DNA of 64,000 nucleotides, taken from assembly GCA_963556145.1 (NCBI GenBank), contig OY744469.1:3816767-3880766 (forward strand), read 5' to 3'. The notes under the pieces are model-generated. The model was not told the origin of the DNA. It made no database searches and saw nothing but the letters and a program-made list of their open reading frames with translations. This DNA is from Hygrocybe punicea (Eukaryota > Basidiomycota > Agaricomycetes > Agaricales > Hygrophoraceae). Every line of letters starts with the position of its first letter. Position 1 is the stretch's first letter. A program made the position numbers and the translations under genes. Shown one piece after another: positions 6,502-56,362 of this stretch.

Positions 6502-6504
6502 ACT

Positions 6505-34020: not shown

Positions 34021-34523
34021 CACTGCTGACACCGCACTATTTTGTGTGATGCAAAATGATTGCAAAATCTTTGGTAGCTTGTTAAAGTTTTGCATATGAT
34101 TTTAAACCATGCAAAATCCATTTAAATTTTCACATATAATAACCCATCAAATACTATCTAAACCAAAAAAATTGCAAGGATTTATGACGTGGAAAATTTT
34201 TAAAAATATGAATGCTTTGTTTTAGGTGAAAATGTAGACAAAAGTGAAACTATTCCCACACCTTGTTTGACTCTCCAAATAGTTGCAAAATGTATCAAAT
34301 TCAATCAATTTTGCAACGCATCTAAATATGATCAATTCAATGTCACCAAATGAAGAATTTTGCAGACAGATTTTGCATGTCACAATATTTCATATTTCAC
34401 AATAAGATTGCACCTTTGCAAAATCTTTCCGAAATAAAACATTTTGCAGACCACAAAATGCTTCGCACACTCAAGTGTGTCGCTTATCACACACTTAGCA
34501 CACACTTAGTGAACACTTGAGTG
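34021..34523 (+). repeat. Left terminal inverted repeat of the CACTA element
   Basis: 503 bp, inverse of 55857-56359. Starts CACTGCTGACACCGC. Rich in GCAAAAT/ATTTTGC words in both directions (for example 34044, 34060, 34303, 34359, 34419, 34440), which may be transposase-binding repeats. It ends in the palindrome-rich stretch CACTCAAGTGTG..CACACTTAGTGAACACTTGAG. No gene. Confidence 0.9.
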
Positions 34524-34573
34524 ACATTTATTGAACACTTGAGCGACATTTATTGAACACTTGAGTGACATGA
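34511..34573. repeat. Three tandem TGAACACTTGAGTGACATT units
   Basis: Three 23-bp copies of GAACACTTGAG(T/C)GACATTTATT in direct tandem at the inner edge of the left inverted repeat. The right end has one equivalent (ACTCAAGTGTTCAC near 55858). 34574-34835 after it shows no gene. Confidence 0.75.
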
Positions 34574-34835
34574 AGATGATATTTGTGTATGTATGACACC
34601 TCAATGACGACTACTAGTGCTAGCTTTTCGATACTGTTAGAATGCTGTTCAATACTCCTGAACTTGCATTAGAGCACACCACTTAAGACAGGTGATGCTG
34701 GCTTACCCGAGACATTGATATAACAACCGTGACGTCCTGCTCTTCCCATTTCAAGAATAAATAGGCAAAATGGGCTTGAATTTGGTCGACTGAGATGACT
34801 TCCAGATCAGCCAGTTGCATGCCCCACATTTGAGC

Positions 34836-37800
34836 TCAAAGTACAGGAAAGGGTTTAAACGGATCAAGGACGTTGTGCACAGGCCTAAGACGTCGGATGG
34901 CAATGTGGGTGGAAGTTCCTTCTGGGGTGGGTAGTTGCACAACACATTCTACGCGAGCAGGAACTGGATTGCTTGCCCCCTTTGTCCCTACAAGAATGCA
35001 AGAGTTGCCTTCGTGTTTAGATGACACAGCATAAGTGATGCCATGGACATTCAGGTGAGAGAGGAGCTGTGCCTTCTGCGGTGGGTCAAAGCCCAGGGAT
35101 GTAGCCAGGGCACGACGGAGGCCTGTTGGGATAGAATGAGCCGTGTTTTCATTCCAAGTAACTGCTTCATCGTGGGCCACATCCCAGCCCATGGATTCAC
35201 TGAGCATGTCGGTGATGAGCGTGTCGCGGACCTGGGGGCTCAAAAGCTTTTCAAACATTGCTTGACAATGTTGCAGAGCTTGTGGACAGTGTGATTTGCA
35301 TAAGAAGCCGCGTAGGTTTGCAGATCGAGTATATGACCTCGACATCGTCTGCTCTAATTCTCCTGGTATGTTTGCACAAATTGCTGCAGCACTGCTTACC
35401 CATTTTGCTGCTGGTAGAAATCCGCTGAAGCATACCAATAGCTCTCTCGAAAGGAAAGGTCCACCATGCATGGAGGGGGCCAAAGAGTAACAGGTACTCT
35501 TGTAAATGCAATGCCATGTGATGATTTGGGTGAAAATGGTACTCTGGGAACAAATCCCAGACCCCATTGAGGTACGACTGCATATGCTGAAGGTACAGGT
35601 TGGCATGGTGGTGGGAGGTCACTCGAGAGGCAGCAATGATGACCGCGGACAGAAGGGATATGGAAACAGAAAGAATCTTGCTACATCGCTCTGTTCGTTC
35701 ATTCCCCTCGTGAACTTTTGCCCAAAGGCGGACAAGTGAAATGGGCAAATAGGTCGTTCCCAGCATGCGCCATTGGTCTGCCTTCACCTTTCCATGTTTT
35801 GAAGAGCCCAAGTCCTGGGGAACAGAAGTTGCCCAGGATGGCGTCACCATGTTCCTGATGTCCAACCAAATCTCCTCCATTTCCTCCATTGTCACTACAT
35901 GGCCGTGGGCAGTTGATGTATCAGCGCCAGTTGTTCGCTTTTCTGGTTGTGCTTGATGCTGTGGGGTGAAGGTGGGTGGGCATGTGGTTCAGATGATCAG
36001 AAAGACCACTTACCCAGGCAAGGATGGCGTCAACCTGGTCACTTTTTGAAGCCCTTCGACATGAGTCCAAACAAGCCGCCATTGGACACTTTAACTCAGC
36101 ACAGATGAATTCGAGGGCACGCGCATGGCACCTCTTAAACTTGTTGACGATCTGCAAGTGGTTCTTGGCCAGTTCAGCTGCCATAGGGCCTTGGAGGTAT
36201 TTCTGTAGCTTTTTGACGCTAGTCTGCTCCTTGGGGGAGAATTCCTTCCAAGCAGAAGAAAGTTCGATGGGCACCACTGGCAATTCCTCTGCCTTTTTCA
36301 GACGAATGCCAAGAATCCCGTCGAAATGCTCTTTGATCAAGCCCAAGAAGAGGTTATGCATGCCATCGACCACCACGCAGTGGGCCGTGTCAAAGTAAGG
36401 TAGTCGGAGTAATTCTGACCAACAGACCCCAGAAGTGTCAAAGAGCGCATGTCTCACCCCCTCGCTGTGTGCGTCGTTGTACTGGTCAGCACAAGCCTGG
36501 CAGTCAGCATTGGAGCGTCGGATCCAAGAATTATAATCTGTATTTCCATAACCATGTGATGATCGAGTACAATGGCAGATTGAACAGAAGTGATTGTGAG
36601 AGTGGGCAGCAAACCCCCCAACTTTTCTTGCCGCAGGGAGGTCGCAGATCACCGCAACCAATGCACAGCGAACCAGTCGACCACAGGGATAGCGGTGAGT
36701 GCGTGAGAATCTGACCCCTGGCACCCAAAAGTCTAAGAAGTCATTGATGAGTGGGGTCAGGTAGTGGTTGATGGCTGTGAGTGGTGGTTCCTGGGGGCCA
36801 GGAATGATCCCCGCCAAAAACATGTTCTCGGGCTTGTAGCGTAATTCAGGGGGGAGGTTGAGGCAAACCAGGGATATGAGGCCAATGGAAGCCTTCTTTC
36901 CTGCCTGTTTATTGGTGTATGGGTTGAAGAAGTCAACACAAAGACTAAATACATAGCGGCCTTCGTCGCCGCCACAGCTGAATGCTGCTTATCAGGGCCT
37001 TGGAATTCGCAAAGGAAAGCACCATCAAAAATGTCCTGCATGTCATCCGTGCTGCTGGCAGCATTTGTCTTCCAGGCGGAATCCATGCATTCCTCAAACC
37101 CAGGTCGAGCTGTCAAACTGGCTACCCAGTCCTTGAAGTCGAAGGAAACAAAGGTTTTGATAGGCACCTGGATCTCCTCACCCATGATCACCTGGGGCTT
37201 GGTCAGGCGTTCCTTACAGCGTGGGCCTCCATGAAACTCCCAGTGAGTGCAATGGTTGGGGTATTGGGCAATAGGGGAGTCACCTTCGAAGGTGGGTTCG
37301 TACGTGCGGTGACATTTCTGGTTGGGGCAGACGGCATAGATGATGCTCTTGCCATCCAGATGAAACTGGTCGGCGGCTGAGCGAGGATCGACAGGGAAGT
37401 CCGACATGAGCTTTTGTTCTCGAGGCGATAGGTGGGGGGCAGTTCTCATCAGCGCAAGCTGGACAATGTATTGCAGCATGGAAAGCATGAAATGGCATCT
37501 GCGACGCCTGACATTCAGCACCACCTGGCAGGCGACCACTAAAAAGAGGGAAACTTGAAGGATGGGATCAACGTGCTGAAGGAAGGGCGTGAAGTGGTGA
37601 TCTGTTTTCATTTCATTGCCCAACGCAGCGCCGTGTTGGGCTAATTTCTGTTTCCACTCCCGTTTTGCCTGGTCCAGCTGACACTGGACTTCATCCAGTC
37701 GCTCGCAGATGGATCTCTTGGTTTCTACCACCGCGGCTTGCCTGCCTTTGATAGCATCTAGCTGATTTTGAAGGTCAGCGCAGGCTGAACGCAGTGAATT

Positions 37801-38340
37801 CAAAGGAGGAGGCGAAGACTCCCCAGAGTGATGTCGCAGTTCAGCCAGTGCTTGGGAGACTTTCTGAGCCAAGTCCACCACGGCTGCCTCGATTCCCGCC
37901 AGGTGACAGATGTGGGAATCCACTCTGCTCCGCTGAGAGGGCTGCGAGCTGGAGGTGCTGGGTGCTTTTGGAGCGCAGGCGTCAACCTTTGGGTGGACTG
38001 TTTCAATGGAGGGTTCTTGCGAGCCAAGTGACAAGTTCTGCAACATCGTTGCCAAATCTTGGGGGTCTGGGTCAGATTTGGACCAAAGCCGTCCGCCTTG
38101 TTGAGTAAATGCCCCAGAAACTTTGTCCACCAGTGTCATCGAAGCCATGTAGTGAGCAATGTCCACGTCGCGGGCATCTATGGCACGCCTTGAGGCATCG
38201 CGAGCAACAGCAGCGCGGTCTTGCAGCTGGTGGGACTTGAATGTGCGGCAGTCCACTGAAATTCCTCGTGGAGAATTTGTTGCGCTGTCGAGCCCTCCCT
38301 TTATGGCGCACCCAAAGGAGGTGCAGAAACAGGTCGGCAT
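34836..38340 (-). pseudogene. Tnp2-family (CACTA) transposase, one frameshift
   Basis: Transposase of the host element. Exons about 38340-36016, 35958-35400 and 35362-34836 (introns 57 and 37 nt), roughly 1130 residues. N-terminus MPTCFCTSFGCAIKGGLD then CRTFKSHQLQDRA, the usual Tnp2 start; a coiled coil follows (SICERLDEVQCQLDQAKRE). The DDE core: FSLCVDFFNPYTNKQ with the first Asp region, FLAGIIPGPQEPP, INHYLTPLINDFLDFWVPG, YPCGRLVRCALVAVICDLPA with the second Asp, FCSICHC, and LPYFDTAHCVVVDGMHNLFL with the third. C-terminal FPFERAIGMLQRI. Near 36983 one base is missing between DKQH and FS-CGGDEGRYVF, so the core is split into two frames. This could be a real mutation or a sequence error; every other part reads through. 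Confidence 0.82.
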
Positions 38341-38801
38341 GAGCTGATGAGCCCAAGGTCGTCGTCTCTGCTCAGAAGAAAGACCCTGCGGTGAATGCAG
38401 GGGAAGCAGTCGTTTGAGAGGCGGGAGGCTGATCTGCTGAGGGTTAAGAGAAAGTTAGGTCCTTTCTTCCTCCAAGGGAACTACAAGACTCACCGTCTCC
38501 AGGCACCGACGTTGCCCTTCATCCCAAAGGGTGAAAACAAGAAAGGCTGTTCCTTGTTGCCAGGCAGCCGTGAGCTGAAGAAGCCCCCCAAAGGCTGAAT
38601 GGATCTGGCCCATTGACTGGTGGCGGCCTGCGTCTTCAAGTCATCGCCTATGACAAATTTCCGCCCAAAGTCCTGCAGGTGTGCTGGCAAGAGGAGGTTG
38701 AGATTAAACCCCAGGTGCTCAGGGAGGCCGGGTCATCTAGAGGTGAAGCCCATGAGCTCAGGCATTGGCCCTCAGCAAACAATCTGCCCGCGTCTTATCG
38801 T

Positions 38802-39367
38802 TCGCTGGTCCACTTGGCCCCAGGGTTGATTCCTGAGTGGCCCAGCGAGCGGTGAGGCGCCGGCAGGGAATGGAGGACTTATGTGGCACTAGTGGTAGGA
38901 AACGATGCGTGTCTGGGAACCCAAGAACACGCCTAGACGAGGAGATGCCAGAGGTACGAAAGAACACGTGTCTGGGAGCCTGAGAACACGCCTAGACGGG
39001 AGACCAAAGGTAAAACTGAGCGCAGAGGAGGAAGTGCTGGGGTAGGAAAAAGCCATGTGTCTGGGAACCCAAGAACACGCCAGTCGCAGATACGAGAGAA
39101 AGGGAGAGAGCGTGTGTCTGGGAGCCCAAGAACACGCTGGAGAAGACAAGGGAAACAATGGGACGAATAAGTGTATAAGTCACAAATAAATACAAATAAA
39201 TAAATACAAATATATCCGAACAAGGTCGGACATTGTGCGACTTCTAAGTTCATCAGCGTCTTATGGGTTCCCTGAGACACTGAGCTGGTACTCTCAATTT
39301 CCCTCGTCTTTTGGGTTGCCCAGAGACGTTCGTTGTTGGCCATGTGTTTTTGGGCTCCCATACACAT
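38802..39367 (-). promoter_or_regulatory. Hairpin module upstream of the Tnp2 gene
   Basis: Starts with long hairpin B at 38802-38850: outer stem CGCTGG/CCAGCG, inner stem CCACT/AGTGG, loop with CCCAGGGTTGATTCC. Then seven hairpin-A palindromes at 38907, 38966, 39055, 39111, 39257, 39304 and 39342, of the form CGTGTCTGGG..CCCAAGAACACG or GTCTTTTGGG..CCCAGAGAC. It lies 460-1030 bp upstream of the transposase ATG. The same order occurs upstream of the TET/JBP gene and of the gene at 53247. I infer a shared promoter or leader. The long frames across it are by-products of the repeats. Confidence 0.6.
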
Positions 39368-40055
39368 CCCTGCTCTTGCTTCTCTCATGCTCCTCTTCAC
39401 ATTGTTCGTCAGGTCCTCAAATTTCACTGCTGTGCTGTGGTTCATTGGTTGTACGACTATTGGCCCTGGAATGGACTACGCTCCCTCAATCTCCGGGAGT
39501 TCAATCTCCTTCTTCACTCGAAGTTCTTTCTTCTCTCGATTCATCAGCTCTGCGTACCAGTCACGGTCATAGAAATTCAACGGCAGGCCAGGTGGCGCCT
39601 CACGCCTGCTCTCCTTTCCCCCGCAAATGCTGCGACGGCGAGGAGGGTTCCCAGCCCAGGTGTTACCATAACAATTGGTGGTGTTGTAATCACGATCAAC
39701 TAACCTCAGGAATCTTGTGATGTCTTTGTTGCGCCATGCCTTTTTTCTGATCGTGTAAATCCTCCTGCTGTCGTCATCATCGTCACTTTCATCCGAGCTC
39801 ATGCCCTCCGCATTAAGTAAATCGACGACCTTGAACAGGCTATTCCAGGCTACGTCAATTTCTCCAGTGGGAGCCATCCTATTGCTCAGGGTGATTTCGA
39901 GCCGGGTGATTTCGAGCCAGGTGTCAAACAGCTGTGGTTGTGGTGGGGATGTAGGCCTAACCAACTGCTAGGGTTTGCTCACCTGCTTTCATCTTGTGTT
40001 TGGTCATTGCCACTCTAATGCAGCCTTCTTGGCCCAGGAAAGTCGTTCCCTGGTT

Positions 40056-43000
40056 TAAGGTTGACCACGGGTGTGGTACGGGTTGACTCGGCTAACACCG
40101 TACCCGTACCCGTTAACACCGCACCCCTTATGGGTTCACATATAAACCGTACTAAAACATATAAGGGTTGACACAAAACCGTGGATACCCGCGGTGTATT
40201 GACATTCTTGGGCGTAGTACACGAAAATACTATACACTACTGGTACAATGAGGCTTTCCCAAGCCCAAACTACACCTCCACAGACTCTTGAGATGCTAAC
40301 TTCCTCTTCTTCGTTCCAGAGTTGACCGCTGCCATTACATCGGCCATCAATACCAAATCATTCCTAGACCAGGAACCGAGGCACAGGGAAGCTCAAACCA
40401 TCTTTGGCGAGAGGCGATTGCGGCTAAAGCTGAGGAGATGACGGCCCTGGGAAAAGATCCACTCAACAGAAGTCGAGGTAGCTAGTTGTGCACCTAGATT
40501 AGTCCTAGTTTTATTGATAGAATGACCAACTCACCGGGAATGCTTAAAAAATCCATGGCCATCCGTGACAGATCTGGATAGACCTCACGGTGCTGCACCC
40601 ACCATTTCAAGGGTTCTTTGATGTTTTCGATAGGCCGGTGAAGATATTCGTCGAGTTCGTGGGACGGCAATTGAACTATGTTCGGCCCAATGGAAATGTT
40701 CGCGAAGTTGTCATCACTCCCGGGCATCTGGTACCGGTTATCTATCAGCCAGATGACAGTTCATCAAGGAGAATACACACCGTTGCACTCGAAGACGTTT
40801 CGCTCGACACCTGACCCTTCTCTCCCTTGTTTGCGTACTTTGCAATGAACTCCTCACGAACCAATTTCTCTGCCTGCTCAATCCATTCCTTCTCCCACTC
40901 GTGCCGCTTGAAATATTCGAGTTTGAGCCCAGGGTGCAACACTGTGAATGAGTGAGTCAGATATGACAAAAAAACTAGACTCTGGAGCGGAAAAACCCAT
41001 GGCAATGCGATAGATCGGCGACGAGTCAGTGAGGGAGTAGTATTGGTCCATTTTCTTGCGTGCTAAAGTCATGGCGGCGAGAAGTGCAGGGTGGTAGGAT
41101 GTCTTCGACGTTGGATTGAGTGCACTGGTGATCTTGTCCATGGCGGGAATGATGGACACGACACTTGCAGAGGCACCCGAGAAAAAGATTGTTGCCTTCT
41201 TGTATTGCTAGAAAAACACAGCGTTAAGAATAGTACAAGAGCGACAACGAAAGAGACTTACCCGCAGAAGGGCGAGGAGATCTTGAATGATCAACCAGTC
41301 TTTGTTATCCAACTCATAGCAACGCAGCTTCAACTTCTTGTTGGCCGTAATTTTGTCAATGGGTTTGCGATACTTCCAAGCAAAATCCATCATATCGAAT
41401 GTAGAGTTCCACCGAGTGACGACATCGCGAGGAATGAGTCTTGGCTTGAGGTCATGCAATGTGCAGGCACGTCGCCAGGCAGGGAGAACAATGGTGGTGG
41501 AATGAATTACAGCGAATGACAGCTTTCGAAGCTGGCAAATCATATGTGAGAAGTAACAGACAAAGAGCCCCAAGTTTGTCACACCTTGGTAACCGTCTCG
41601 CAAACAGCAGCTGTCTTGGTCAAGATCTCCTCACATTCTTCTTCAGTAAGCTCGGTGAAATTGTTATTGTCATCGCGATCATCCACATCCTCATTGTCTG
41701 ATCCACCTGCCTCTTCTTCTCCTTCGTCTTCCTCATCGCTCACACCTTCAAGTTCGGGGATTTCGTCGATATCGATATCGTTCTCTTCAGTACTGTCGGG
41801 AGGCGCCGAAGATGAGAGGGCAGGATTAAACGGTGCAAGGAGTGTCTTGGCCGAGAGCTGTATGGTATGGTTGAAGCAGCGTATGTGGTTATCTTCTTCA
41901 TATGAATTGTTGCGACGAGCGAGCGATGTAGATTGGGTGTTATTTGACGACGCATTATCTGCGTTAATTGCATGTATCTGACCGATCACGTTAGTTTCTA
42001 TAGTACAATGGTATATTGATATAACAACTGTACCACGTGAACTACTGAATAGCACTGAACTGACCTTATGCTGAATTCCATGCTGCTTGAGCATGTCCTG
42101 GAAAGCAGATGCGAGTGCCACACCAGTGTGAGACTGCCAGAATGTTAGATACTCGATCAGTGTGACCCAGTCGCCTGGCTCACCTCAGGAACCTCGTTGA
42201 TGTCAATCAACACCCCAAGCATCTCGCCTTTGTACTGAAAGTGCACGGTCCACGCGGCAAAGGCACGGTGATTCGGCGAGGTCCATGCATCGGTGGCAAT
42301 GTGTAGACGGCCTGGGTATGCCTGTTGCAATGTATCGGTGGCAGGTAAACGAAAGATTGAATTGGTACTCACACAGAGGAGGGTTGTGACCCTCTTACGG
42401 CACTCGAGATAGGCAGCGTTGACGTCGCGTACAATGGTTGTGCGTCCTGGAAGGGAAAGATGCGGCCATCCAGCCATGAGAAGCTCGTGATCGTTGATGA
42501 TATTGGTTCGTCGGTTGTTCTCGGTGAGCCATCTCACGAGATGCGCACTGTGTGAGTTTTAATGTTAGTTGAACGCTGTAAAACTAATAGTATACGATCT
42601 TACCGAACCTCCGTGTTTGTATGCGGGCGATGGGAGCGCTGTTGAGGTTGCTGGCCTTGTAAAGCGAAAGCGGCAAACACAGAGCCGTTCTGGGCACTCT
42701 TGGCACCAGTCCCAAGCTTCACCGCGTCTTCACTGAAGCACTTGATTGCGTGGCCCTTGAGATTGGCTGTAGAAGCCCTGTCCTTCGAATCTTGGAAGCG
42801 TCGCACTCCACCAATCGGGGTCTTGCACAGGCGAGCAGCACAAGGGAAGAAATGGCAAAGTCGGCCATCGTGGTACTGAATGGTGACGTCGGGCTTAAAA
42901 AAGTTGTAGATGGGCGATCTCCACGTCTTCTGTAGTGCCTCTAGACAGAAGTTAGGATATGAGAGAGAAAAACCAAAGATTACTCACTAAGCTGCTCCTC

Positions 43001-43578
43001 CAGGGACTCGGATTCATGCTCTGAGTTTGTCGCATTAGCTTCGGTGTCTGGGTTACTGGCCGCTTCATCAGGTTGAGAATTGTCGGTGGCGATAGCGGGA
43101 TTAGAGCGGCTCGGCAAAGAGGAGGTCTTCTTGGTAGCTGAAGAAGCCTGTGAGACGGAAGATTTCTTAGATTTAGTGGATCATTTCGCCATTGGGGGAT
43201 GAACTCACCGGGAGAATCAAGACCTCTTATATACGCTAGCCATGAAGAAGATCCGGGCTTGACATTGTGAGAGTCAGAGATAAAAGAGAGTCGAAATAAA
43301 GGAGTGTGGGAGGAAGAGCGAGTCAACGCGAGGGAGACAGAGTCAGTCGCAGGAGTAAGGAGACCAACAAGGTCATTCACAGTCAGACTCGGACCGAGAA
43401 CAAAGAACAATAACAGATCGACGATGATGGGATCTGTACGTCACACCCGTATCAGACCCGTACACCGTGCCCTCGGGTCACGGTCTAGCCTCGGGTATGG
43501 GATCCCGAAACCGTACCCGTACCTGATCAACCCGTATAAGGAATACCGCGGGTGAACCCATACCCGTGGTCAACCCTA
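40056..43578 (-). mobile_element. Complete 3.5-kb hAT transposon
   Basis: Inverted ends TAAGGTTGACCACGGGT (left) and TAGGGTTGACCACGGGT (right, inverted), flanked by a perfect 8-bp duplication CCCTGGTT (40048-40055 and 43579-43586). Subterminal regions are full of GTACCCGT/ACGGGT words. It carries one transposase gene on the minus strand and sits inside an exon of the surrounding cargo gene, so it arrived after that gene. Confidence 0.93.
40270..43192 (-). pseudogene. hAT transposase with nonsense and CpG-type mutations
   Basis: ATG at 43192, then MAK followed by TGA at codon 4 and STKSKKSSVSQASSATKK. Next a BED-like zinc finger region (YNFFKPDVTIQYHDGRLCHF, CKTPIGGVRRFQDSKD, NLKGHAIKCF), the catalytic core (AYPGRLHIATDAWTSPNHRA, FAAWTVHFQYKGEMLG; HAINADNASSNNTQ; an acidic insert; IPRDVVTRWNSTFDMMDFA) and the C-terminal dimerisation domain (HELDEYLHRPIENIKEPLKW, SRMAMDFLSIP). 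After a 53-nt intron: ATSTSVEWIFSQGRHLLS. The family consensus there is ERVFSRGR, so Arg became Trp and Gln. A second TGA follows SPKMV, before ASLCLGSWSRNDLV. Stop at 40270-40272. About six introns. It cut and pasted hAT DNA when intact; now dead. Confidence 0.85.
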
Positions 43579-44950
43579 CCCTGGTTTGGTGGCCTCTCTC
43601 GCCTGGTTTGGGGGAAGCAGCCTGGATCTCTCGCTTGAGGCAATACAAGCGTCCAAAGAACATCTCATGGATTTCGACATAATTTTCATCGGTCAAGGTG
43701 TGTCCACCGCCATCGGGGGTTGGCGCTTCCAGATAAGTGATGAACAATTCATATAATCGGTAGTTCCATTCGCCATGGAGATTGCTCCAGTCAGGCAACA
43801 TGGGGTATAAAGAGGGTCCTGGTCCCCCCCCGTTGTCTTCATACCAGTCAAAGTCATCCTGTGGAGGAGGAGGGATGCGTAATGCATCCTTGTCATGTTC
43901 AATGCCAAACAGTTTGTTCATGGCAGCTCGGACCTCTTTCTGCAAGGCCTGGTTTGGCATTTCGTCACTTGTAGCACATTTCAACTCACCAGTTTTCCAG
44001 TCCTTGAGGGGCTGTGGTTCCTGATTGGTGCTGGCTTAAATCGGCAGGGTGGCAATCTTCGGGTTGTTTGAGGCCTTTGAGGGCCTGGCTGAGGCTGCCC
44101 AAACTTCAGTTCATCTAAGTTGGCAAGCAACAAGTCAACCTTGTCCTCCAATGTTACCGGCTAGCGGCTCGTCTATCAGCAGTGATTAACATGAAGAGTT
44201 GGAGCCACCCGCCTGTTTTGATGACAACCCGTTTGGCTCAGGTGAAGCTGAAGGTTGCAAGGGCGGCTTCGGCTTGAATGTGGCCTTGAGGGTTGGTCCT
44301 GCTCCTGCCCGTGGTCTTGAGAACCGCATCGGCAGCGGCACATTTTGGGTTGCAGGGTTCTGAGTTTCCTAGGTAGTCAATTAATTACGTGTGGGCAGGT
44401 TTCAAAACGCTTTTCTTACCAGTCCACTGTCGTCGTTTGACTCGTCCTGGGCTTGCTTCTCCTGCTCCTTGCTTTCACTTTCTGTGGACAATTGCATCAT
44501 GACATCCTCGCCGTCGCTGGCATTCCTTGTCTGCTGAAGATTCCTCAGCAGCTGTTCAGCTTGCTGTGCTCGCTTTTCAGCGAGTTGAGCCGCTGCCTCA
44601 GCAAGTCTCACTCGCTCTTCGAGTGACTGAACAAATGCCAGGATGTGTTGGGTGCCGTGACTTTCTTCTAGCTGGTTTAGTTGGTAAGGAACTATTTTTG
44701 ATACAGGGCATGACAGCTTACCTCGAGACGTAGCTTTTCAATTGTTGCAGTGTTCTCTACCAACAAAGTCTTTGTTTGTAAACTCTCTTGTTCGACAAGC
44801 AGAACCTTCTGCACTGAACCCTGTCGGCTGCTATTACCGGGTTCCCTTGCTGCTGGGCTAGGGCATCATAATCTTCCGCCTTCTTGAACAGTGTGGAGGG
44901 ACGGAGTCAGCTGAGAGAACTGGGATGGAATCGAGTGATGATAGTGATGA

Positions 44951-45501: not shown

Positions 45502-46120
45502 ATGCCTTCACTCTGCATGCCCACATTGCCTACCAGTAAAGTACGTCTCCATGTGGCTGTTAAGTCGGCAAAGGCTCAACAAGTATAGGATAACTACCTG
45601 CAAATCCGCGCACGTCTGTACGCCTCAATGTCACGCCGTCCTGTCTTCACCAAAATCCAGACGCATGAATGCGGCATTAACCGATTTCCTCTGCTTGAGG
45701 GGGCAATAGCCCATTTACGAACCCAGCCATTCATCCATGACTGCCCAGTCATCATTTGCAAGGCAAACCGCTCCCATGTGTTCCACGTATTTTGTAAGAA
45801 CCACCTACTTCTACCAATCAACGACGTCATCAAATACATGGCGCCTGGCTATCCATGGAAAGGTGATCTTGTGGTCATGCGAGTTGGCAAAACTCGGGCA
45901 GTGGTCAACATGCACGGCAGAGATGCGGCCTTAGCAGATTTTGCTGTAAAAAGGTGAATCATCCCAGCTATGACGCACCCACTCATATCAAACCAAGGCC
46001 TTCAGGTTTGTGGAACATGTTCAGCAAAAGACGCCCTTCCGGTTCCCAAAGAAGCTGGTGTTCAGAATGGGTAGCATGGCGGAGCAGGCCAGAAGGTTGC
46101 GTTCTAGTAAAAAGTTTTAA
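45502..46120 (+). CDS. Small cargo protein of unknown function, intact
   Basis: Three exons: 45502-45540 (MPSLCMPTLPTSK), 45589-45953 and 46006-46120, with introns 45541-45588 (GTACGT..TATAG) and 45954-46005 (GTGAAT..TTCAG) that keep the frame. About 172 residues. The protein reads DNYLQIRARLYASMSRRPVF, THECGINRFPLLEGAIAHLR, GYPWKGDLVVMRVGKTRAVV and NMHGRDAALADFAVKRFVEH, ending LRSSKKF. It is basic at the C-terminus, with no signal peptide and no motif that I can name. It converges on the TET/JBP gene with 70 bp between the stops. No stop codon or frameshift seen. Confidence 0.6.
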
Positions 46121-46190: not shown

Positions 46191-47707
46191 CTACTTTTGC
46201 TCTTCTACTCGGGTCAGCAAACCTTCCAGGGTGCTGAAAAGCCCAAGCCCCATTTTCCACCGGGTTTTCTTCTTTTCAAGCACCTCCACAAATGCAGCGG
46301 GATCCTCTTCAGCCAATTTGGCTTCCGTTCGGAAACCATTGTCCACGTAGCGAAGCAGGCCACCTGCACAATACTGCGTGAATGAAACACGAGTATCACC
46401 TTTCTGTACCAGGATGTTTGAATGGGTGAGGGTGGCGGAGGGGATCAGGATGAGGGCTCCAGGAGGGAATTCAATGACCAACTTGAGGTCCCAAAGAATG
46501 AGGTGGCCTCCAGCTCGTGGGTCAAAGTGGCCAAGTGCCTGTATGGCACACCAGCCAAATGGGCAGTTCATGTTATCCCGGTGCTTGAAAGTCCAGACGT
46601 TTGGACCAAAATTGAATGTGGCGCTGGGAAAGATGCTGTGTTGAAAGTTTTGGCGAAGATGGGGCATCTTGACATAGAGTGACTCCAAATGGTTTCGGTA
46701 ATAATTGTATATCTCGGGGGCCCACAGAGTGAAAGATGCTACAGAACCAGGCCATGAGGCCATTTTCTAGAAGCGTGGATAAAAACTTACCGCTGGTGAA
46801 GGCGGCGAGCCGCTGGATGTCTGGGTTGCCCAACAGGCTCTCGGCCAAGGCATTGTATGCACCGTTGTTCAACCTAATGGGCATCTTGGTGCCCTTGTTG
46901 TGGGTAATCCCCACATTGAGGACAGGGAAAAGTCCACGTGAGTGTAAATTGGGCTTTAGCTGAGCCCGGTCTGCCAGGTGCGTGAAGAATTGATAGCTGG
47001 CCTCCACAGCAGCTGCAAATGTCGAATCACGCGGTTGCCCAACAAGACAGGCAATTATTCTTTTCTGGAGGTCATAAATGGGCCTCAATTCACTTTCAGA
47101 AGTGGTCAGCTCCTACCGCCCTGCACAGGGATGAAAGGCTCACTAGCCATCCCAAGCCACCAGCAGAAACCCAATGCCCAACAACTCCAGCAAAGTGTAG
47201 GGTTTGCGAGTACCCAAAAACTTCTGCGGAATAGCTTGGTAGCCACAGGAAGTGGCAGGAAGGCCCTCTGTTTCCAGCGAGGTGAAGAGTGGAGTGGCAG
47301 GCTGCATGTGTGCTTTGACAGTTTTGGCTCACGGCAAGTGCCCGTGGAGCTGCCAGGCTGCCTCTCACTGGCGGCGGCGTTTCACGTGTTGCCGAGTGAG
47401 TTTTTCTGGTGTAGGAGGGTCATTCCCGCGAGCGCGTTTTGCTGAAGGTGCTTCTGGAATGGGGGTTCGCCTCGCCATATCTGGCGCCTCCTCATTCTCA
47501 GTCAGCTCTTCCTCCTCTGCTTCTTCATTTTCTCTTGAAAAAGCGGCTTCCAGGAGCAGTCCGAAATCCAAAGATCCTGGACATTGGAGGGAGGAGACGC
47601 CATAGGGAGAGAAAAGTTTGCCTGAGCGTGTCTGCACCCACAGCATCAGTGAGCTTCCGAAAAAAAATTGGGTTGCTCACCTGTTGAGCTTTGGGGAACC
47701 AGATCAT
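46191..47707 (-). CDS. TET/JBP-family 2-oxoglutarate/Fe(II) dioxygenase
   Basis: Fungal TET/JBP enzymes oxidise 5-methylcytosine (and thymine in JBP). Proposed exons: MIWFPKAQQ (47707-47681), 49-nt intron, TRSGKLFSPYG with acidic run and the basic KRARGN (likely nuclear), intron, GTRKPYTLLELLGIGFLLVA-WDG, 54-nt intron, YELRPIYDLQKRIIACLVGQ, GLFPVLNVGITHNKGTKMP, 52-nt intron, FTLWAPEIYNYYRNHLESL and the double-stranded beta-helix core. Core residues: iron ligands in FKHRDNMNCPFGWCAIQ (HxD) and SATLTHSN (distal His), oxoglutarate Arg in DTRVSFTQYCAGG; GGHLILWDLKLVIEFPPGA is the typical strand pair. Stop at 46191. About 420 residues, no stop or frameshift with these joins. Gene order and orientation match the transposase gene. 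Substrate activity is inferred from family only. Confidence 0.85.
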
Positions 47708-47770: not shown

Positions 47771-48068
47771 CCCGCTGGTCCTCTCGGACCCAGGGTTGAT
47801 TCCTGAGAGGCACAGCGGGTGTTCAGACACTGGTCAAAAATGAGGCTTACCGGGGCCGGAGAATGGGAAATTCGGCGACAAAATGACTGGAAAACCTGAT
47901 GAGAAAGCGACGAGGTGCTGGGAACGAAGCGCGAAGGCCGCGTGAGAAAGGCAGGAGAGGGCTGAACCAGAACACGCAGCGAAGAGGAGAGAAAGCGTGT
48001 CTGGGAGCCCAAAAACACGTAGCAAGAGGAGGACTAGAGAGCGTGTCTGGGGAACCCAAAAACACGTG
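47771..48068 (-). promoter_or_regulatory. Hairpin module upstream of the TET/JBP gene
   Basis: Hairpin B at 47771-47819 with outer stem CCCGCTG/AGCGGG, inner stem CCTCTC/GAGAGG and loop CCCAGGGTTGATTCC; it lies 64 bp upstream of the proposed ATG. Two hairpin-A palindromes follow at 47995 and 48041 (GCGTGTCTGGG..CCCAAAAACACG). Same order and orientation relative to the gene as at Tnp2. Probably promoter or 5' leader; function inferred from repetition. Confidence 0.6.
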
Positions 48069-48767: not shown

Positions 48768-49619
48768 CTAATCGTCATGCCCTTTTTTCTCTGGCACAGC
48801 CCATTTCTTTCTTGGAGCTCCCTTCCTGGCAGCGACCGCCTGTCTCACTGCTTCCTCCACCTTCCTTGTTATGGCCTTCTCCTTTGCGCGCCGAGTGCTT
48901 TCCGAGGTATATTTCAGGTGGAGCTTCAACATTGACCTGACTGGCCAATGGTCAATGTATTGGTCCACAATTGGATGTCTCTTGGCTGTCTATGTGACTG
49001 GTGAGCAGCTCAGCGGGCATAGGCAGCACATTTGCTTACTTGGCGACAAATGGTGCGTATTGCATGATCTTTTTGACGTGCAAAGCTGATGCCTCAGTCA
49101 AGCTTCTCATTGGCTCAGGAACGGACATATTTCTATGACTTGAGGTCAATTACCACACCCTTTGTTATTGGCTGATGTTTGCATCACCTGCACTTTCTCA
49201 AATTCTGTTTTGGGCCATCCAAGTACGTCCTTCAAGTTGTAACCACCGCTGCCCGGGTGTCCTGCCTCACCTGGCAGCTTAGGAATTTTGCTACTGCCAA
49301 TGGTTTCCTCCTCGCTTTCTAGAGCGGATAGTTCCGACATGGTTTCATCACTGCATTCACTCTCTTCGTGGTTGTTTGTCCAAGAGTTCATGTCTTGTTC
49401 TTCCTCGTCAAAATTGATCCGTGGGGTAATCATGGGGGGGTCAGGAAGTTCCTGAGTGGTGAATATGATGCATCCGGTGATAAGTGGCAGGTGTTGGCGA
49501 ATAAAAGCAGCAGTCTCCATTATTTCTGATGGCTTTCGTGTAGCCATATTTATTATTATTTGTGGTCCTTTTATTTTGTGGTCCTTGTTCCCTTCGAGTC
49601 TCTTCCATATACAATGCAT
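48768..49619 (-). CDS. Small acidic cargo protein, family unknown
   Basis: First exon from 49619 (possible later start MATRKPSEIMETAAFIRQHL): ITGCIIFTTQELPDPPMI, an acidic Ser/Glu run, then PKLPGEAGHPGSGGYNLKDV and LGWPKTEFEKVQ. Introns near 49190-49110 and 49050-48985 lead to PMRSLTEASALHVKKIMQYA and PIVDQYIDHWPVRSMLKLHL, ending with a basic tail (AARKGAPRKKWAVPEKKGHD). I recognise the PKPPGE-GRPGSGGY..LGW pattern only as a mushroom lineage-specific protein that accompanies transposons; no biochemical role is known to me. Exact splice joins are not settled, so I cannot say whether it is intact. Confidence 0.5.
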
Positions 49620-49907
49620 GACTCTTGTCCCTCTAATAGAGTGCCCCTTGTCCTTTGTCCTTATTGTCGCATCGTCTCATAAGCGTGCCCACGTCACGTC
49701 ACAATTACATGGAATATGAAGTCTTCACAAAAGGATGGTGCACACAATTATATATTTGAGTACATAATACTGAGCCTTAGCATCATACCTGTGAAAATTT
49801 TCCTGTGTTATTCACGCGTACATCACATCCATGCCATCAAGCATTCGACAAATGTGGGACCATATTTTTGTGTTGAAAGATGTACGCCAGGTTGAACCCC
49901 CAAGTTC

Positions 49908-52309
49908 ATGCCTGGCCTGACTTCCAGACAGCAATATCGACTAGCTCGACGGCTTGCTGGCCACACTGCAGCCATCAACTGCTTTGCCTTCGCACGCGAT
50001 GGCGAGCAACTTGCAAGCGGAGGTAAGGAGACTGGCGACTTGGGACGACGACGCTGACGGCGTGTGACGTAGGCGATGACGAAACGGTTCGCATTTGGAC
50101 CTTGGAGAAATACAAGTGTGTTCAGGTGATTCATGACAATGGAAAGTGGGGGCAAATCACCTGTGTAAAGTGGCTAGCCTCCGAAGCTGGAGTCATGGGT
50201 GAAACACTTTGCTTCAGAACTGGGAGAGGAATGGTGTCATGATCAGTATATCGCCAAAGCAGGCTTGGGGTGAGTCTGCGTCTTGTTTCATTCAATAGCA
50301 GCGCTGATGATGGCCAGGGCAAGTTCGTGGAGTTATCAAACACTCGCACGTTTGCTGTTAGCGACAGCGTTGAGGCCCTGGCATTTGATCCAACATGCAG
50401 CTGGCTGGCAGCGTCAAGTCACTATGGCCAGGTTCATATTTATTGCCTGGAGAAGAATGGTGAGTTGAGAATTTGAAGAGGTGCCTTCGAAAGAATACTT
50501 ACGAAAACAAAGGCACTCTGGTGAGCATATGGAATAAGCACTTGCTAGACGTGACCATCCCTCGTGCTATCCACTTCATGGGCGGCTATCAGAGCCTTTT
50601 GGTGTTCAGTTTGGAGTCAGGAGAAATGTGAGTCAACGCATGAGTCAACGCATACCAGCCACAGCATGTTGCTAATTTCCATGTGGCCAGTTCCTGTCGA
50701 GATGCGGAGACTTCCATAAAGAAGTGGTCCAAGGTGTTGAAGTCAGGCATGTGAGTTATTTGACGGAAAGAAGTCCGTGGAACTGAGGTGGTTTTTGTAG
50801 AGGGAATGCCAGCATCTGCCCATCGGAGAAATTCCTTCTCATCGACAACTTGACGACTGGATTTGATCTATACAACATTACTCAGACTTCTCCTGTGCAA
50901 TCCTTCAGCGTACCAGTCACTCGAAGATACATCAAGAAAGGGGTTTTCGCAGAGCAAGCCAGTGCGGTTGTATGCGGAAGCGATCACGGTGGTGTCTACG
51001 TTTTCAACACAAACTCAGAAGGAGTGGTCCAAACCTTGCATCACGATGGAGGTGAGTTTGTCCACTTTCCAAAATATGGGGATGGTGTTGAATTTAGATA
51101 TTCAGGTCAAGTATTGGTTCAGACAGTCGAGGTACATAAACAAACAAGAGGTCGACTGAGTCTCAGTATTGGATTTAGGCCGTCTCTTCTCCTGAGTGCC
51201 ATCTCATTGCCTCGGGTTCATCGGAAAATTGTTTCGACATATGCATCTGGGAGAAACCGGTGAGCATCAAAGCATGCCACATACATGTTCAGTACTCACC
51301 ACTTCCCAGACCAAGCAGGCCATCAACAAGCGTGAAAAGGTGGACCATTGTAACGGCGAGTTCTGTTGTAGACCCGGAATAGGAATCTACGGAAAGGGTG
51401 ATCAGCTAAGAAGTGATCAGAGGAGTAAAGTCTTTGTAGTCTAGTCAATCCAACCCGAATCCAGGGTTCCGGATCAGAGGGGAAGTGAAGGGAGTGGAGT
51501 ACGAAGACTAATATGGAGACGATACGAAGCGAGGACTAAGAAATAGAACTGAAGGGATGCAATATGATGGGATGCAATGTAATAATGTGATATGGTGGGA
51601 TATAATAATATGGTTGTAGTATAAGGGTACATCTTTTATACTACTGGGAGTGATCCTGTGCTGTAGTAACTATGTACTACAACCGAAGGCTGTAACTGAT
51701 AGGAGTGGAGTGGAGCGGAGTATAGGAGGAATGGTGCTATGTACTAAGTAACGGGAAATGAAGATATATCATATGTAACTATATACATACTGATTCCGGG
51801 TCGTTAGAGACATCGCATCTTGAGTAGGAACAATTCCGGAGGTGGAATCTGGAGTGGAATCGACGGAGAGGACCGGAATCGGGCAGAATCGACGATACGT
51901 GAATGGGAATGGACGGGGACGAAGTGGGATATGAAGAGGATTCGGGTCTAGAGGGCCCAGAGCCTCTACACCATGCACTCTCCGACTGGTTGGTGATGCT
52001 AAATGGGTTGGTTTTGTTCTTGATTCTTTACTTGACGTCAAAATTTTGGACGCCAGCGTTGGTCCAGGTATGTGGGTCGCCCTTTTGTCTTTCTTGATCT
52101 GACAGTATGAGCAGGGCACCGAGTCGATCACCGCCGTCATTCAGAAGAGCCTGGAATTGCACAGGATGCCAACCTTTGAAAAGACACCCGAGGACCCCTG
52201 GGCATGGTTTGCTGACCTAGATGACACCAAACTGAGGCAACTTTTGGGCATGAAAAAGATGACGATTGAAGATGTACGAGGGGAAGTACGAGGGGAAGGC
52301 CCCGACTAA
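49908..52309 (+). pseudogene. WD40-repeat protein with C-terminal membrane segment
   Basis: ATG at 49908: MPGLTSRQQYRLARRLAGHT, then AAINCFAFARDGEQLASGG, intron, DDETVRIWTLEKYKCVQVIH and GQITCVKWLASEAG, classic WD40 blades ending in a GH..WD-like pattern. Later exons give VEALAFDPTCSWLAASSHYG, IPRAIHFMGGYQSLLVFSLE, CPSEKFLLIDNLTTGFDLYN and VFAEQASAVVCGSDHGGVYV. The last exons contain a hydrophobic span (WLVMLNGLVLFLILYLTSKF) and end at 52309. The whole resembles a propeller anchored in a membrane by its tail. Breaks: an in-frame TGA after TGRGMVS (about 50237), and an inserted sequence at 51364-51812 in the 3' part. Cargo of the CACTA element; ligand unknown. Confidence 0.65.
51364..51812 (-). 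mobile_element. Probable solo LTR inside the WD40 gene
   Basis: Read on the minus strand it starts TGTCTCTAACGACCCGGAATC and ends ATTCCGGGTCTACAACA, so TG..CA ends with an inner GACCCGGAAT/ATTCCGGGTC inverted pair, 449 bp. It contains a TATA-like AGTATAAAAGATG near 51625-51640. The A/G-rich sequence is unlike its coding flanks. No matching 5-bp duplication was found, and similar non-coding sequence continues to about 51890, so the boundaries are provisional. Confidence 0.4.
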
Positions 52310-52441: not shown

Positions 52442-53133
52442 CCACTGGTCCTCTCAGACCCAGGGTTGAGTCCAGAGAGGCCCAGCAGGCAGGAAGGGCT
52501 GGCCAAAAACTAGGCTGATGACGTGCGAGGACGCCACGAGAGGTGCATGAGAGGAGCAAGAGCAGGGATGTGCATGGGAGCCCAAAAACACACAGCCGAC
52601 AACGAACGTCTCTGGGCAACCCAAAAGATGAGGGAAATTGAGAGTACCAGCTCAGCGTCTCAGGGAACCCATAAGACGCTGATGAACTTAGAAGTCGCGC
52701 GATGTCCGACCTTGTTTGGATTTATTTGTATTTATTTATTTGTATTTATTTGTGACTTATACACTTATTCGTCCCATTGTTTCCCTTGTCTTCTCCAGCG
52801 TGTTCTTGGGCTCCCAGACACGCGCTCTCTCCCTTTCTCTCGTATCTGCGACTGGCGTGTTCTTGGGTTCCCAGACACGCGGCTTTTTCCTACCCCAGCA
52901 CTTCCTCCTCTGCGCTCAGTTTTACCTTTGGTCTCCCCATCTAGGCGTGTTCTTGGGCTCCCAGACACGCGTTCTTTCGTACCTCTGGCATCTCCTCATC
53001 TAGGCGTGTTCTTGGGTTCCCAGACACGCATCATTTCCTACCACTAGTGCCGCGTAAGTCCTCCATTCCCTGCCGGTGCCTCACTGCTCGCTGGGCCACT
53101 CAGGAATCAACCCTGGGGCCGAGTGGACCAGCA
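52442..53133. promoter_or_regulatory. Double hairpin module between WD40 gene and last cargo gene
   Basis: Hairpin B in plus orientation at 52442-52489 and in minus orientation at 53088-53133, with seven hairpin-A copies between (52569, 52606, 52655, 52799, 52856, 52944, 53003). 52530-53190 is an inverted near-copy of 38770-39400, that is of the Tnp2 upstream region. The minus-oriented hairpin B lies about 115 bp before the ATG of the plus-strand gene at 53247, the same geometry as at Tnp2 and TET/JBP. The plus-oriented copy would serve a leftward gene, but none is present. TTTATTTGTATTTATTTG lies in the middle. Confidence 0.6.
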
Positions 53134-53246
53134 AACGCTAAGACGCAGGCAGATTCTTTGCTGAGGGCCAACACCTGAGCTCATGGGCTTCTCTTTTTAG
53201 CCACCCACTGCCTTTCTCACATCTCGAACACATCCTCTTGGCCCCA

Positions 53247-55788
53247 TGTCCGCTCCATCAAAGTCGCTGGACCACTCCGAAGGACATGTGCATCTCCTGA
53301 ACAGAGTGCTCTATTACTCCCCAAATTCGTCACGGAACATATCACCCCCCCACCCAAACCGCCTCACTTCCTCACGACCAATGTTTTCCAGACCCGATCA
53401 CCCGGCCGCCTGCAGGATTACCAACATCCCCGTTGGTGGACTTCAGCCTTCGGTTATCTGAGCTTCTTGCCAGTCCATCCCTCATTCAGTGGCTACCCAT
53501 TCGACCGCCTCGCTCACATACCACCCCTCGAGAAGGAGGAGGGGGGATTCCGCCTTTGTCCCTACCTCGCAAGCCATTGGCTTCGGCTCAAGCAAAGGCT
53601 GGTCCACGCCATCGCCTTGTTGTCGCAGAAATACCCCGTTGCCGTCCTAATGCCTTGGTACCCCTCCGCATGGGGTTATGGATGACCTCACAAAAGTCAC
53701 TACATTGCGCGATGGCGTGCCATCATTTCGAGGGACTGGTTTGTCGTCTTCATGGCCACCCTCTCCTTTCTCATGGCTGCAGGGGAGTCGCACTTCCGCA
53801 ACGCCCTCGTCCCGGACTGGTTTACCTGGTTGGCAGAGGCTGGCTATGACCAGTCCTGGTTGGCAGGGGTCGCTTCGTCTTCTGTCCACACCTTTTCATC
53901 ATTTGTTCCCCACGTAGGGGTCTTCCTAGACCTATTGGATCCCGAAAAAACGGAACCAGCAGTGGAGTGGTTCTGTCATTACCACATCCCTGTTTGGTAT
54001 CCTTGGAGAGCAGAAGAAGCACAAGCCGTTCACCAGCAAACCTGGCTCCAGGGTTTGGCTCCTCCTCCCCATAAACTGCAGGACGCAACTACTTTCTTCA
54101 CCTCTGCTCCCTCAGCATCTTCGCATCTCCTCACCACGGTGCCTTCAGCTTCACAGGACCCACAGGACCAAGCAAGCCCAGCTCTTTCCAGCACCCATCC
54201 TACGAAGGCCCACCCCACGTGGAGAGACTTCTTTGCTGAGCGTGAAAGGATGAATGCTCAGAAGCTGGAGAAGGAATCCCCTTCAGCCCGTCAGACTCGG
54301 TTGAATCGTGAGCGCAACCCACCCACCGTTAGCGCGAAAGTATTTGAGTGGGTCAAAAGCGAGGAGATTCCTTTGCAGCTCGTACGTAAGGCGGTCCTGC
54401 GGAGTGCTAGAGAAGAAACATTAGGGAATTATGGGGCAAATCAGCGACGCTATGATGCGTTCTGGAATGAATGGGACTGTTGTGAGGAGTTTGGGCCGGA
54501 GGATGACCATGACAACGAGGACAATGATTATGATGAGGACTTCTGGGGGCCACGGCAAGAGGAGATTCAACCAGATCCAGATCACAACCCTGGAATCCGA
54601 ACCCAGAGGTCACCATCACCACCCCTCATGGCAGATGACATTCAGCCTATGCAGGAAATGCCGGACATGTACGAAATCGTGCACCTCCTATCCATGCATC
54701 ACGGATTCGTGCCGCCAATACCTGTTCCCCACCAGGCTCGCCACATGGAACCCCAGGCCATACAGGCCTTCCTTCGCGTGGTCGGATTGACACAACAGGA
54801 TGATCTCATCTTCGCGATGGGTCTCGGCGCGATTGCCTTAAACTTTGTTGAAGTCCTCGTCTCGGGTCTGCAACCTGAGCAACCTTTGTGGGACTTGAGT
54901 CGGGACAGCCGCCAGCCTCTGGTCCTCACAGATCGCATCAAGCACCTTTGCCGTCTGCCTTCTGGGCTTTACTTCTTTGACTTTGGGCGAGCTGCGACCG
55001 TCCCGTGGAAGATCGCTGTCTCTCAACCTGCTGATGTGCTTTACATCTGCAGATTGGATGCTGGGTGTCAGGAAGTAGACATCGCTCGAAACCTCCTGCA
55101 GAGGGGAATTCAATTCCGAACTCTTCACCCCCTTAGGGAAATTCCTGGCTCGCTGTCATTCTGCACCTCCACCGTTCCCATTCGGCTCTCCGGGTACAAA
55201 TTCTCAAGAAGAGACTATGATGCATATCTGCACCAGCGTGCTGTGATCTTGAGTGGCCGTGGGGGTTGAGCAGCACTTCTCTGAGGAGGGGTTTTGTGGC
55301 GTCTCGCTGTGCAGGAAACAAGCTTCCACACCGTCTTACAAGGCCCGTCATCTGTGGTACTCCTGCATCAGGATGGGTTTTCGGTTCAAGATAGCAATTT
55401 GGTTGATTGCCTCTGGGATGATGACTTGAGCGAGGATGAGATCCTTTTACTTTGTGGGACATATATTTGTTATACTGGTACGTTTGTGCTTTTAATGCTC
55501 TTACTTGACCAACCTGATGGGCTGTTAGGCAATGGCGCCCAGACCACCACTGTGTCTTGGTTTCCCCTGCCCTGGACGTATGATGCAAGTGGAGAAAACT
55601 ATGGACATTGGACTGAGTGGTCTGAAACAGTTTACCAAACGTGGTTGACCAGAGTTGAGAAGGGAGAGCCACCACTTCCTCAACATCGATGGCGAGATCG
55701 ATTAAGGGGGCACCACAAATCTCGCAAGCTCAAGCAGGCCATGTCTTCCATTTCCAAAGGTTTCCTCAAAGATCACAGCGGGTTGTAA
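53247..55788 (+). pseudogene. Large cargo protein of unknown function, three TGA stops
   Basis: The main frame runs from about 53200 to 55480, then a 48-nt intron (GTACGT..GTTAG) and a last exon to 55788. Recognisable segments: PSFSGYPFDRLAHIPPLE, HYIARWRAIISRDWFVVFMA, VPHVGVFLDLLDPEKTEPAV, HIPVWYPWRAEE, HPTWRDFFAERERMNAQKLE, ERNPPTVSAKVFEWVKSEEI, RRYDAFWNEWDCCEEFGPED, ALNFVEVLVSG, KIAVSQPADVLYICRLD, LLCGTYICYTG and TYDASGENYGHWTEWSETVY. I know this as a recurrent, transposon-associated mushroom protein without assigned function. In-frame TGAs stand at 53683, 55267 and 55282, each at a place where CGA (Arg) would restore the frame (AWGYG-PHKSHY, GRGG-AALL-GGVLWRLAV). The N-terminal start is uncertain. 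Confidence 0.65.
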
Positions 55789-55856
55789 ATTTTAGTCCTC
55801 TTACTTAGTGAATAAAATAAAAAGTCTTTACTCCACTCAAGTGCCTTCTAGGCTTG

Positions 55857-56359
55857 TACTCAAGTGTTCACTAAGTGTGCGCCAAGTGTGTGATAAGTGA
55901 CACACTTGAGTGCGCGAAGCATTGTGCAGTCTGCAAAATGTTTTATTTTGGAAAGATTTTGCAAAGGTGCAATCTTATTGTGAAATATGAAATATTGTGA
56001 CATGCAAAATCTGTCTGCAAAATTCTTCATTTGGTGACATTGAATTGATCATATTTAGATGTGTTGCAAAATTGATTGAATTTGATACATTTTGCAACTA
56101 TTTGGAGAGTCAAACAAGGTGTGGGAATAGTTTCACTTTTGTCTACATTTTCACCTAAAACAAAGCATTCATATTTTTAAAAATTTTCCACGTCATAAAT
56201 CCTTGCAATTTTTTTGGTTTAGATAGTATTTGATGGGTTATTATATGTGAAAATTTAAATGGATTTTGCATGGTTTAAAATCATATGCAAAACTTTAACA
56301 AGCTACCAAAGATTTTGCAATCATTTTGCATCACACAAAATAGTGCGGTGTCAGCAGTG
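55857..56359 (-). repeat. Right terminal inverted repeat of the CACTA element
   Basis: 503 bp, inverse of 34021-34523 with about 5% differences; ends ..GGTGTCAGCAGTG followed by the duplicated ATT. Carries the same GCAAAAT/ATTTTGC words. Confidence 0.9.
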
Positions 56360-56362
56360 ATT

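What the first reader, a model, noticed from the sequence alone, without database searches (positions are those of the whole stretch)
34021..56359. A 22.3-kb CACTA transposon with target duplication carrying a TET/JBP dioxygenase and other cargo
Seen: 503-bp inverted ends beginning CACTGCTGACACC, ATT on both outer sides, a Tnp2 transposase and at least six other genes inside. Known: TET/JBP genes in basidiomycetes have been linked mainly with KDZ transposons; a DNA-methyl-oxidising enzyme as cargo of a Tnp2/CACTA element is to my knowledge not a standard observation. Inference: the element may alter its own or its neighbours' cytosine modification, which would help it escape silencing.
Basis: partly seen in the sequence, partly recalled or inferred. 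Interest (0 to 1): 0.88.

Follow-up and report, generated by a model that had tools for sequence, protein, structure and literature searches.

The report
Fungal CACTA transposon with TET enzyme
This is a genuine large mushroom transposon that carries its own DNA-demethylase-like enzyme, and its main genes share one repeated control-like sequence with a motif seen only in this transposon family, which makes it a testable case of a transposon that may undo its own silencing.

Summary
Of 8 copies read, 5 have perfect 3-bp duplications and 6 carry the TET gene. Without nested insertions (a hAT-type element, a solo-LTR-like piece) the core is about 18 kb.

The claimed novelty fails: TET-bearing EnSpm and Plavaka elements are in print (Kojima 2025). 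This TET is HxD and not detectably CcTET-like, so it fits neither Agaricomycete type described there.

Beyond the finding: transposase, TET and ORF527 stand behind copies of one module R in fixed orientation (29 of 30 cases listed). R holds a palindrome with 50 exact matches in 92 Mb, all in this family's stretches. Blocks between R copies are inverted or lost; two copies lost TET so. A shared control module served by the TET is the boldest open reading; CpG decay inside R speaks against constant protection.

The parts
34018..34020 (.). target-site duplication ATT, left
   Evidence: empty sites
34021..34523 (+). left terminal inverted repeat with 10 TGCAAAA motifs (subterminal-repeat type)
34989..38340 (-). 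Tnp2 transposase gene, several exons; start codon at 38340 is inferred
   Evidence: PF02992; dN/dS 0.20-0.23 (core) between subfamilies, exons
38745..39396 (-). R1: shared 5' module upstream of Tnp2; 95% identical to R3 over 653 bp
39488..44865 (-). gene hX of unknown function (pieces about 39488-39931 and 43553-44865), split in this copy by the hAT-type insertion
   Evidence: dN/dS 0.09-0.46 by piece; no confident Pfam match
40056..43578 (.). nested hAT-type insertion, 8-bp duplication CCCTGGTT; not part of the element
   Evidence: hAT-like RNase-H only at E 0.032, below cut-off
45589..45954 (+). conserved 122-aa open frame; which strand codes is not settled
   Evidence: dN/dS 0.27, antisense frame 0.26
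46197..47631 (-). TET/JBP-type dioxygenase gene: exons 46197 to about 46751 and about 46795-47112; upstream exon(s) within 47146-47631 inferred
   Evidence: fold of a homologue
47996..48066 (-). r2: diverged R module upstream of TET, two palindromes left
48774..51345 (.). segA: block with conserved short open frames of unknown function
51349..51969 (.). nested solo-LTR-like insertion (TGTA..TACA), 4-5-bp duplication; not part of the element
52539..53191 (+). R3: shared 5' module upstream of ORF527 with four palindromes
53365..55785 (+). ORF527 gene, family of unknown function (some relatives carry PF28437 in precomputed annotation)
55857..56359 (-). right terminal inverted repeat with 10 TGCAAAA motifs
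56360..56362 (.). target-site duplication ATT, right

Best explanation
It is a large CACTA/EnSpm element (core about 18 kb) of a mushroom-type fungus. Shown: it moves as one unit with 3-bp duplications; both of its subfamilies carry a TET/JBP-fold dioxygenase that evolved under purifying selection; its copies show CpG decay of the kind cytosine methylation leaves; transposase, TET and ORF527 stand behind copies of one module R with a palindrome private to the family. Inferred: R is the common promoter or leader of the three genes; the host silences the element by CpG methylation; the element's TET oxidises methylcytosine on element DNA and so keeps or reopens expression, in cis or in trans for the family. 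Also inferred: the internal inversions and the loss of the TET block are by-products of recombination between R copies.
Against: No methylation, expression or enzyme data. TET-less copies E7 and E8 have perfect duplications, so TET in cis may not be needed to move, or it was lost after insertion. TET's synonymous divergence between subfamilies (1.15-1.6) is about twice that of Tnp2 (0.61-0.64), so separate uptake of related TETs is not excluded. CpG decay is not clearly lower in TET+ copies, and R1 decays at CpG faster (0.069 per CpG cell) than the adjacent Tnp2 part (0.042), so R is not shielded in resting copies. Within subfamilies dN/dS of TET is 0.71-1.29 (exon 2) and 0.22-0.73 (exon 1), as for relaxed copies; E2's TET is split by a 12-kb insertion. 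In group A the R copy before TET is only a remnant. Copies are related, so 29 of 30 are not independent tests. Substrate (5mC, 6mA or other) unknown.
Confidence: 0.72

Rival explanations
1. The TET gene is passive or drifting cargo: captured by the element, not needed for its spread, and lost readily. (The rivals here do not exclude one another, so the odds need not sum to one.)
For: 2 of 8 copies read lack TET yet have perfect duplications; a relative at C39:4713-4737k has ORF527 and Tnp2 relatives but no TET match; dN/dS 0.71-1.29 in exon 2 among recent copies.
Against: dN/dS 0.10-0.11 in exon 2 between subfamilies means long-kept function; TET is present in both subfamilies.
Confidence: 0.15
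2. The TET serves the host or the whole transposon community (global demethylation), not this element in particular.
For: About 30 places with more distant TET relatives (42-52% identity) elsewhere in the genome.
Against: 12 of 16 places with close TETs have this element's ends on the same stretch, and in group B the gene has the element's R module.
Confidence: 0.1
3. R is not a promoter but a recombination or transposase site, or an RNA hairpin leader.
For: Block rearrangements in E3, E6, E7 and E8 break at R; the motif folds as a short RNA hairpin (-7.7 to -8.3 kcal/mol, z -1.6 to -2.4).
Against: R lies at gene 5' ends in fixed orientation, not at the element ends.
Confidence: 0.3
4. Two unrelated ends flank the span by chance.
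For: E2, E3 and E4 have no matching 3-bp duplication.
Against: Empty sites of E1 and E7; the same end pair around Tnp2 and ORF527 in 8 of 8 copies read.
Confidence: 0.01

Closest known systems
TET+ EnSpm and Plavaka elements of fungi (Kojima 2025, PMC12730594)
   Same: CAC..GTG ends and 3-bp duplication (EnSpm), CACTA-type transposase plus TET/JBP gene; Agaricales among the hosts
   Different: There the TET of Agaricomycete EnSpm/Plavaka is the PE type (HxE). Here the motif is HxD, and CcTET, which stands for the AG type, is not found by sequence or profile. No shared 5' module or block shuffling was met in the parts of that text read; its supplements could not be read.
Maize En/Spm with TNPA
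   Same: CACTA element; TnpA activation correlates with demethylation of the element (passage in PMC10398659); repeated motif near the ends (recalled for En/Spm)
   Different: TNPA has no known oxygenase activity (recalled); here an oxygenase gene is encoded and a second repeated motif lies at gene 5' ends.
Arabidopsis VANDAL/VANC anti-silencing (PMC10398659, passages)
   Same: Element-encoded anti-silencing; repeated short motifs in noncoding parts that evolve in concert and differ between families
   Different: VANC is not known as an oxygenase (recalled) and VANDALs are MuDR-type (PMC12730594); whether TET or another protein reads the palindrome here is unknown.
KDZ transposons with TET/JBP
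   Same: Transposon-borne TET in mushrooms
   Different: Tnp2 with 3-bp duplication here, not a KDZ transposase.

Membership tests
CACTA/EnSpm transposon | ends starting CAC, inverted | tested here: met
   CACTGCTG..CAGCAGTG; the name-giving CACTA is CACTG here
CACTA/EnSpm transposon | 3-bp target-site duplication | tested here: met
   5 of 8 copies read; empty sites
CACTA/EnSpm transposon | Tnp2 transposase | tested here: met
   PF02992 over cut-off; CxxC and HxxxxH seen by eye in the translation
CACTA/EnSpm transposon | short repeated motif near both ends (recalled as a family trait) | tested here: met
   TGCAAAA 7-10 times per end in 8 of 8 copies, 0 in the rest of E1, 1-7 in the rest of the others; Markov expectation 1.03 per end, maximum 6 in 1000 simulations
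Plavaka | CATCA..TGATG or TGT..ACA ends | tested here: not met
   definition from PMC12730594
TET/JBP dioxygenase | TET-like double-stranded beta-helix fold | tested here: met
TET/JBP dioxygenase | HxD...H iron site and R | tested here: met
TET/JBP dioxygenase | Pfam PF12851 above cut-off | tested here: not met
   16.2 bits against 34.9; highest of the relatives tried 20.2
TET/JBP dioxygenase | oxidation of 5-methylcytosine | not testable with these tools
   needs an enzyme assay
AG type (CcTET-like) of Kojima 2025 | close sequence relation to CcTET | tested here: not met
PE type of Kojima 2025 | HxE in place of HxD | tested here: not met
   HRD
PU type of Kojima 2025 | grouping with rust TETs | not tested
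   its sequences are in supplements not available here

The most novel reading that the evidence does not exclude
The element is a self-contained anti-silencing regulon: transposase, TET and ORF527 are driven by one promoter module that evolves in concert and carries a palindrome private to the family and bounded by CpGs; an element protein (ORF527, hX or TET itself) reads the palindrome and brings TET to demethylate only this family's promoters, a DNA-oxidising counterpart of VANC and Spm TnpA. Recombination between the modules reshuffles gene blocks while each gene keeps a module.
Probability: 0.22. Interest if true: 0.85.

Novelty: new variant of a known kind. Interest (0 to 1): 0.62.

Why it matters
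The role of transposon-borne TETs is a guess that has not been tested. This family offers one genome with TET+ and TET- copies of one element, a defined candidate target (R with a private palindrome) and a visible methylation scar, so the guess that such elements demethylate themselves becomes directly testable. It also shows a transposon whose main genes share one homogenised upstream module and whose inside is reshuffled at it.

Tried and rejected
Chance ends: rejected by empty sites. TET inside a nested element bounded by the inner repeats 38745-39396 and 52539-53191: considered first; rejected because these repeats (R) recur in this family at gene 5' ends. hAT-type genes as cargo: rejected, nested. 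R protected from methylation: looked for and not seen. KDZ partner for the more distant TETs: in the KDZ list (150 of 429 candidates scored, list cut) I saw no general pairing by eye. ORF527 fold: not obtained. Cross-species copies: not tried; genome contigs is described as bacterial and archaeal, viral contigs was not scanned, the metagenome cap was 0, and the protein search gives no context. Empty site in another strain: not available.

Dropped or weak rows: the 'Tnp2N' rows were read in a wrong frame (many stops, dN/dS 0.6-3.1) and are not used. One search failed in its tile table (a missing value) and was repeated. For some searches the hit lists were copied by hand, with neighbouring R pieces merged; weak relatives (TET near 48%, distant Tnp2 and ORF527, some fragments) were left out. 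The one 'opposite' case (C3:5687153) is a Tnp2 piece beside a split R. R3 had 12 CpG cells and is not used. Besides the long same-direction R matches, one search lists short inverted matches (42-58 bp). One search scored 40 of 50 candidates, one search scored 40 of 61, so counts are lower bounds. Synonymous divergence differs by block (ORF527 0.15-0.18, Tnp2 0.61-0.64, TET 1.15-1.6); I read the low value as exchange of the right block between subfamilies, not proven.

Literature: claims of absence rest on the capped listings and the parts of PMC12730594 read. Iyer et al. 2014 was not read (recalled, and cited in PMC12730594).

Full report
Observation. The window lies in a 92.2-Mb genome of 42 contigs. 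The ends 34021-34523 and 55857-56359 are 98% alike inverted repeats beginning CACTGCTGACACC, with ATT outside both. The end sequence has 43 matches from 40 scored candidates of 61, in two groups: 93-100% (A, with the window) and 77-84% (B). By eye these give 13 plus/minus pairs on one contig, one of them a 0.8-kb foldback; I read 8 in full (E1 the window, E2-E8). Perfect 3-bp duplications are present in E1, E5, E6, E7 and E8 and absent in E2, E3 and E4. Joined flanks of E1 match across the junction at 8 places over about 330 bp and at 2 shorter ones; joined flanks of E7 do so in 40 of 40 scored candidates of 491. I did not read the letters of those sites. It is one inserted unit.

Anatomy. E1 against the other copies shows later insertions in E1: a hAT-type element at 40056-43578 with 8-bp duplication CCCTGGTT and a solo-LTR-like piece at 51349-51969. 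Without these the core is about 18 kb, as in E5 (18.6 kb). The core has Tnp2 (PF02992), a gene hX split by the hAT-type insertion, a short conserved frame at 45.6-45.95 kb, the TET gene, a block segA with conserved frames, and ORF527. Between subfamilies dN/dS is 0.10-0.11 for TET exon 2, 0.15-0.20 for exon 1, 0.20-0.23 for the Tnp2 core and 0.24-0.31 for ORF527; within subfamilies TET exon 2 gives 0.71-1.29 and exon 1 0.22-0.73. TET's dS between subfamilies (1.15-1.6) is about twice that of Tnp2 (0.61-0.64), so its history may differ from that of the transposase.

Methylation scar. In three blocks (8.7 kb) aligned over six B copies, 402 private substitutions comprise 243 CpG transitions, 63 other C-to-T or G-to-A, 34 reverse transitions and 62 transversions (summed). 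Per site, CpG positions change about 6 to 40 times as often as other C/G positions, copy by copy (one copy has no other C-to-T in one block). The genome has 5 matches to the DNA methylase domain PF00145. This fits CpG methylation of the element in the germ line. TET-less E7 and E8 are not clearly worse than TET+ copies.

The module R. 38745-39396 and 52539-53191 are inverted copies, 95% over 653 bp. E5 has three copies, upstream of Tnp2, TET and ORF527; measured back from the first conserved codon they share 876 bp (Tnp2/TET, 95.5%) and 363 bp (all three, 98.9%), in the same direction relative to the gene; short inverted matches of 42-58 bp also occur. In group A the copy before TET is a remnant with two palindromes. 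Genome-wide, 30 of 48 close gene copies have a listed R within 4.5 kb upstream, 29 in the fixed orientation and 1 opposite; the copies are related and not independent. Between subfamilies R aligns only in short pieces, while Tnp2 and ORF527 align throughout at the DNA level (TET exon 1 only as protein), so R copies appear to evolve in concert. What persists is a palindrome, CGTGTTCTTGGGYTCCCAGACACG in group A (CGTGTTTTTGGG.. before TET) and CGTGTTTTGGGYTCCCAGACACG in group B. The pattern CGTGTN{1,3}TTGGGYTCCCAGACACG has 50 exact matches in the genome and none for its reversed control; all 50 lie in stretches that also carry other hits of this family, the one at C39:3470k most loosely. 40 of 50 point in sense to a listed gene start within 4.5 kb, none in antisense, 10 have no listed gene near. 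R3 also has a TATA-like run before the palindromes (by eye). The ends carry a different motif, TGCAAAA, 10 times per end in E1 and not at all between.

Rearrangement. Order after Tnp2: E1, E2, E4 and E5 are hX-TET-segA-ORF527; E6 has the whole hX-TET-segA part inverted; E3 has segA first and TET-hX inverted; E7 lacks hX-TET and has segA inverted; E8 lacks hX-TET with segA in place. The break points fall in R. E8 fits recombination between the direct repeats R1 and R2. Five arrangements in eight copies follow from recombination between R copies.

Mechanism. Shown: unit, selection on TET, CpG decay, shared module. Inferred: R is promoter or leader, TET acts on element DNA. R1 decays faster at CpG than the next part of Tnp2 (0.069 against 0.042 per CpG cell): R looks like a methylation target in resting copies, and any protection must be transient or limited to active copies.

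Known and new. Kojima 2025 (PMC12730594) already describes TET+ EnSpm and Plavaka elements and suggests escape from silencing. The Agaricomycete types there are AG (CcTET-like) and PE (HxE); as far as tested this TET meets neither. VANC of Arabidopsis binds repeated short motifs in noncoding parts that evolve in concert, and Spm TnpA is linked with demethylation (PMC10398659, passages). Within the listings and the parts read, I met no TET-bearing transposon whose genes share one private-motif module and are reshuffled at it. I file it as a new variant of a known kind.

Noticed in passing
L010-L011 (about G000:C39:5545599-5557611, 12-kb insertion in TET exon 2 of copy E2): A 12-kb insertion with ends TAGTGTTGCCAC.. 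and an apparent 8-bp duplication (one mismatch) carries its own gene of the ORF527 family, so ORF527-like genes also ride on a second kind of transposon.
   Followed up: partly
G000, about 30 places: A second TET family (42-52% identical to the window's TET) is present in many copies outside this element and not clearly next to the listed KDZ transposases.
   Followed up: partly
window 53221-55900 against E3-E8: The ORF527 block is 86-97% identical between subfamilies by 300-bp tile, the rest mostly 72-90%, and its dS is lowest: likely recent exchange of the right-hand block.
   Followed up: partly
G000:C41:2476269-2608137 (copies E3 and E4): The 3 bases right of E3 (GAG) are the reverse complement of those right of E4 (CTC), as if an inversion between the two copies had swapped flanks; three bases only.
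   Followed up: no
G000:C1:5534600-5535413: Two ends lie back to back as a 0.8-kb foldback: a likely short nonautonomous derivative.
   Followed up: no
copy E6, element positions about 1116-2046 (L022): An insertion of about 0.9 kb in Tnp2 has short matches (65-69 bp, 82-83%) to the ends of the window's hAT-type insertion: perhaps a nonautonomous relative.
   Followed up: no
window 625-7160 and 56761-57474: Other long inverted repeats in the window (arms up to 745 bp, 99%; a 0.7-kb palindromic unit right of the element, 88%).
   Followed up: no
L029 (G000:C1:2546001-2556000): A TET relative (about 75%) with no Tnp2 or ORF527 match nearby but R-like pieces upstream: perhaps a relic of a further subfamily.
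   Followed up: partly
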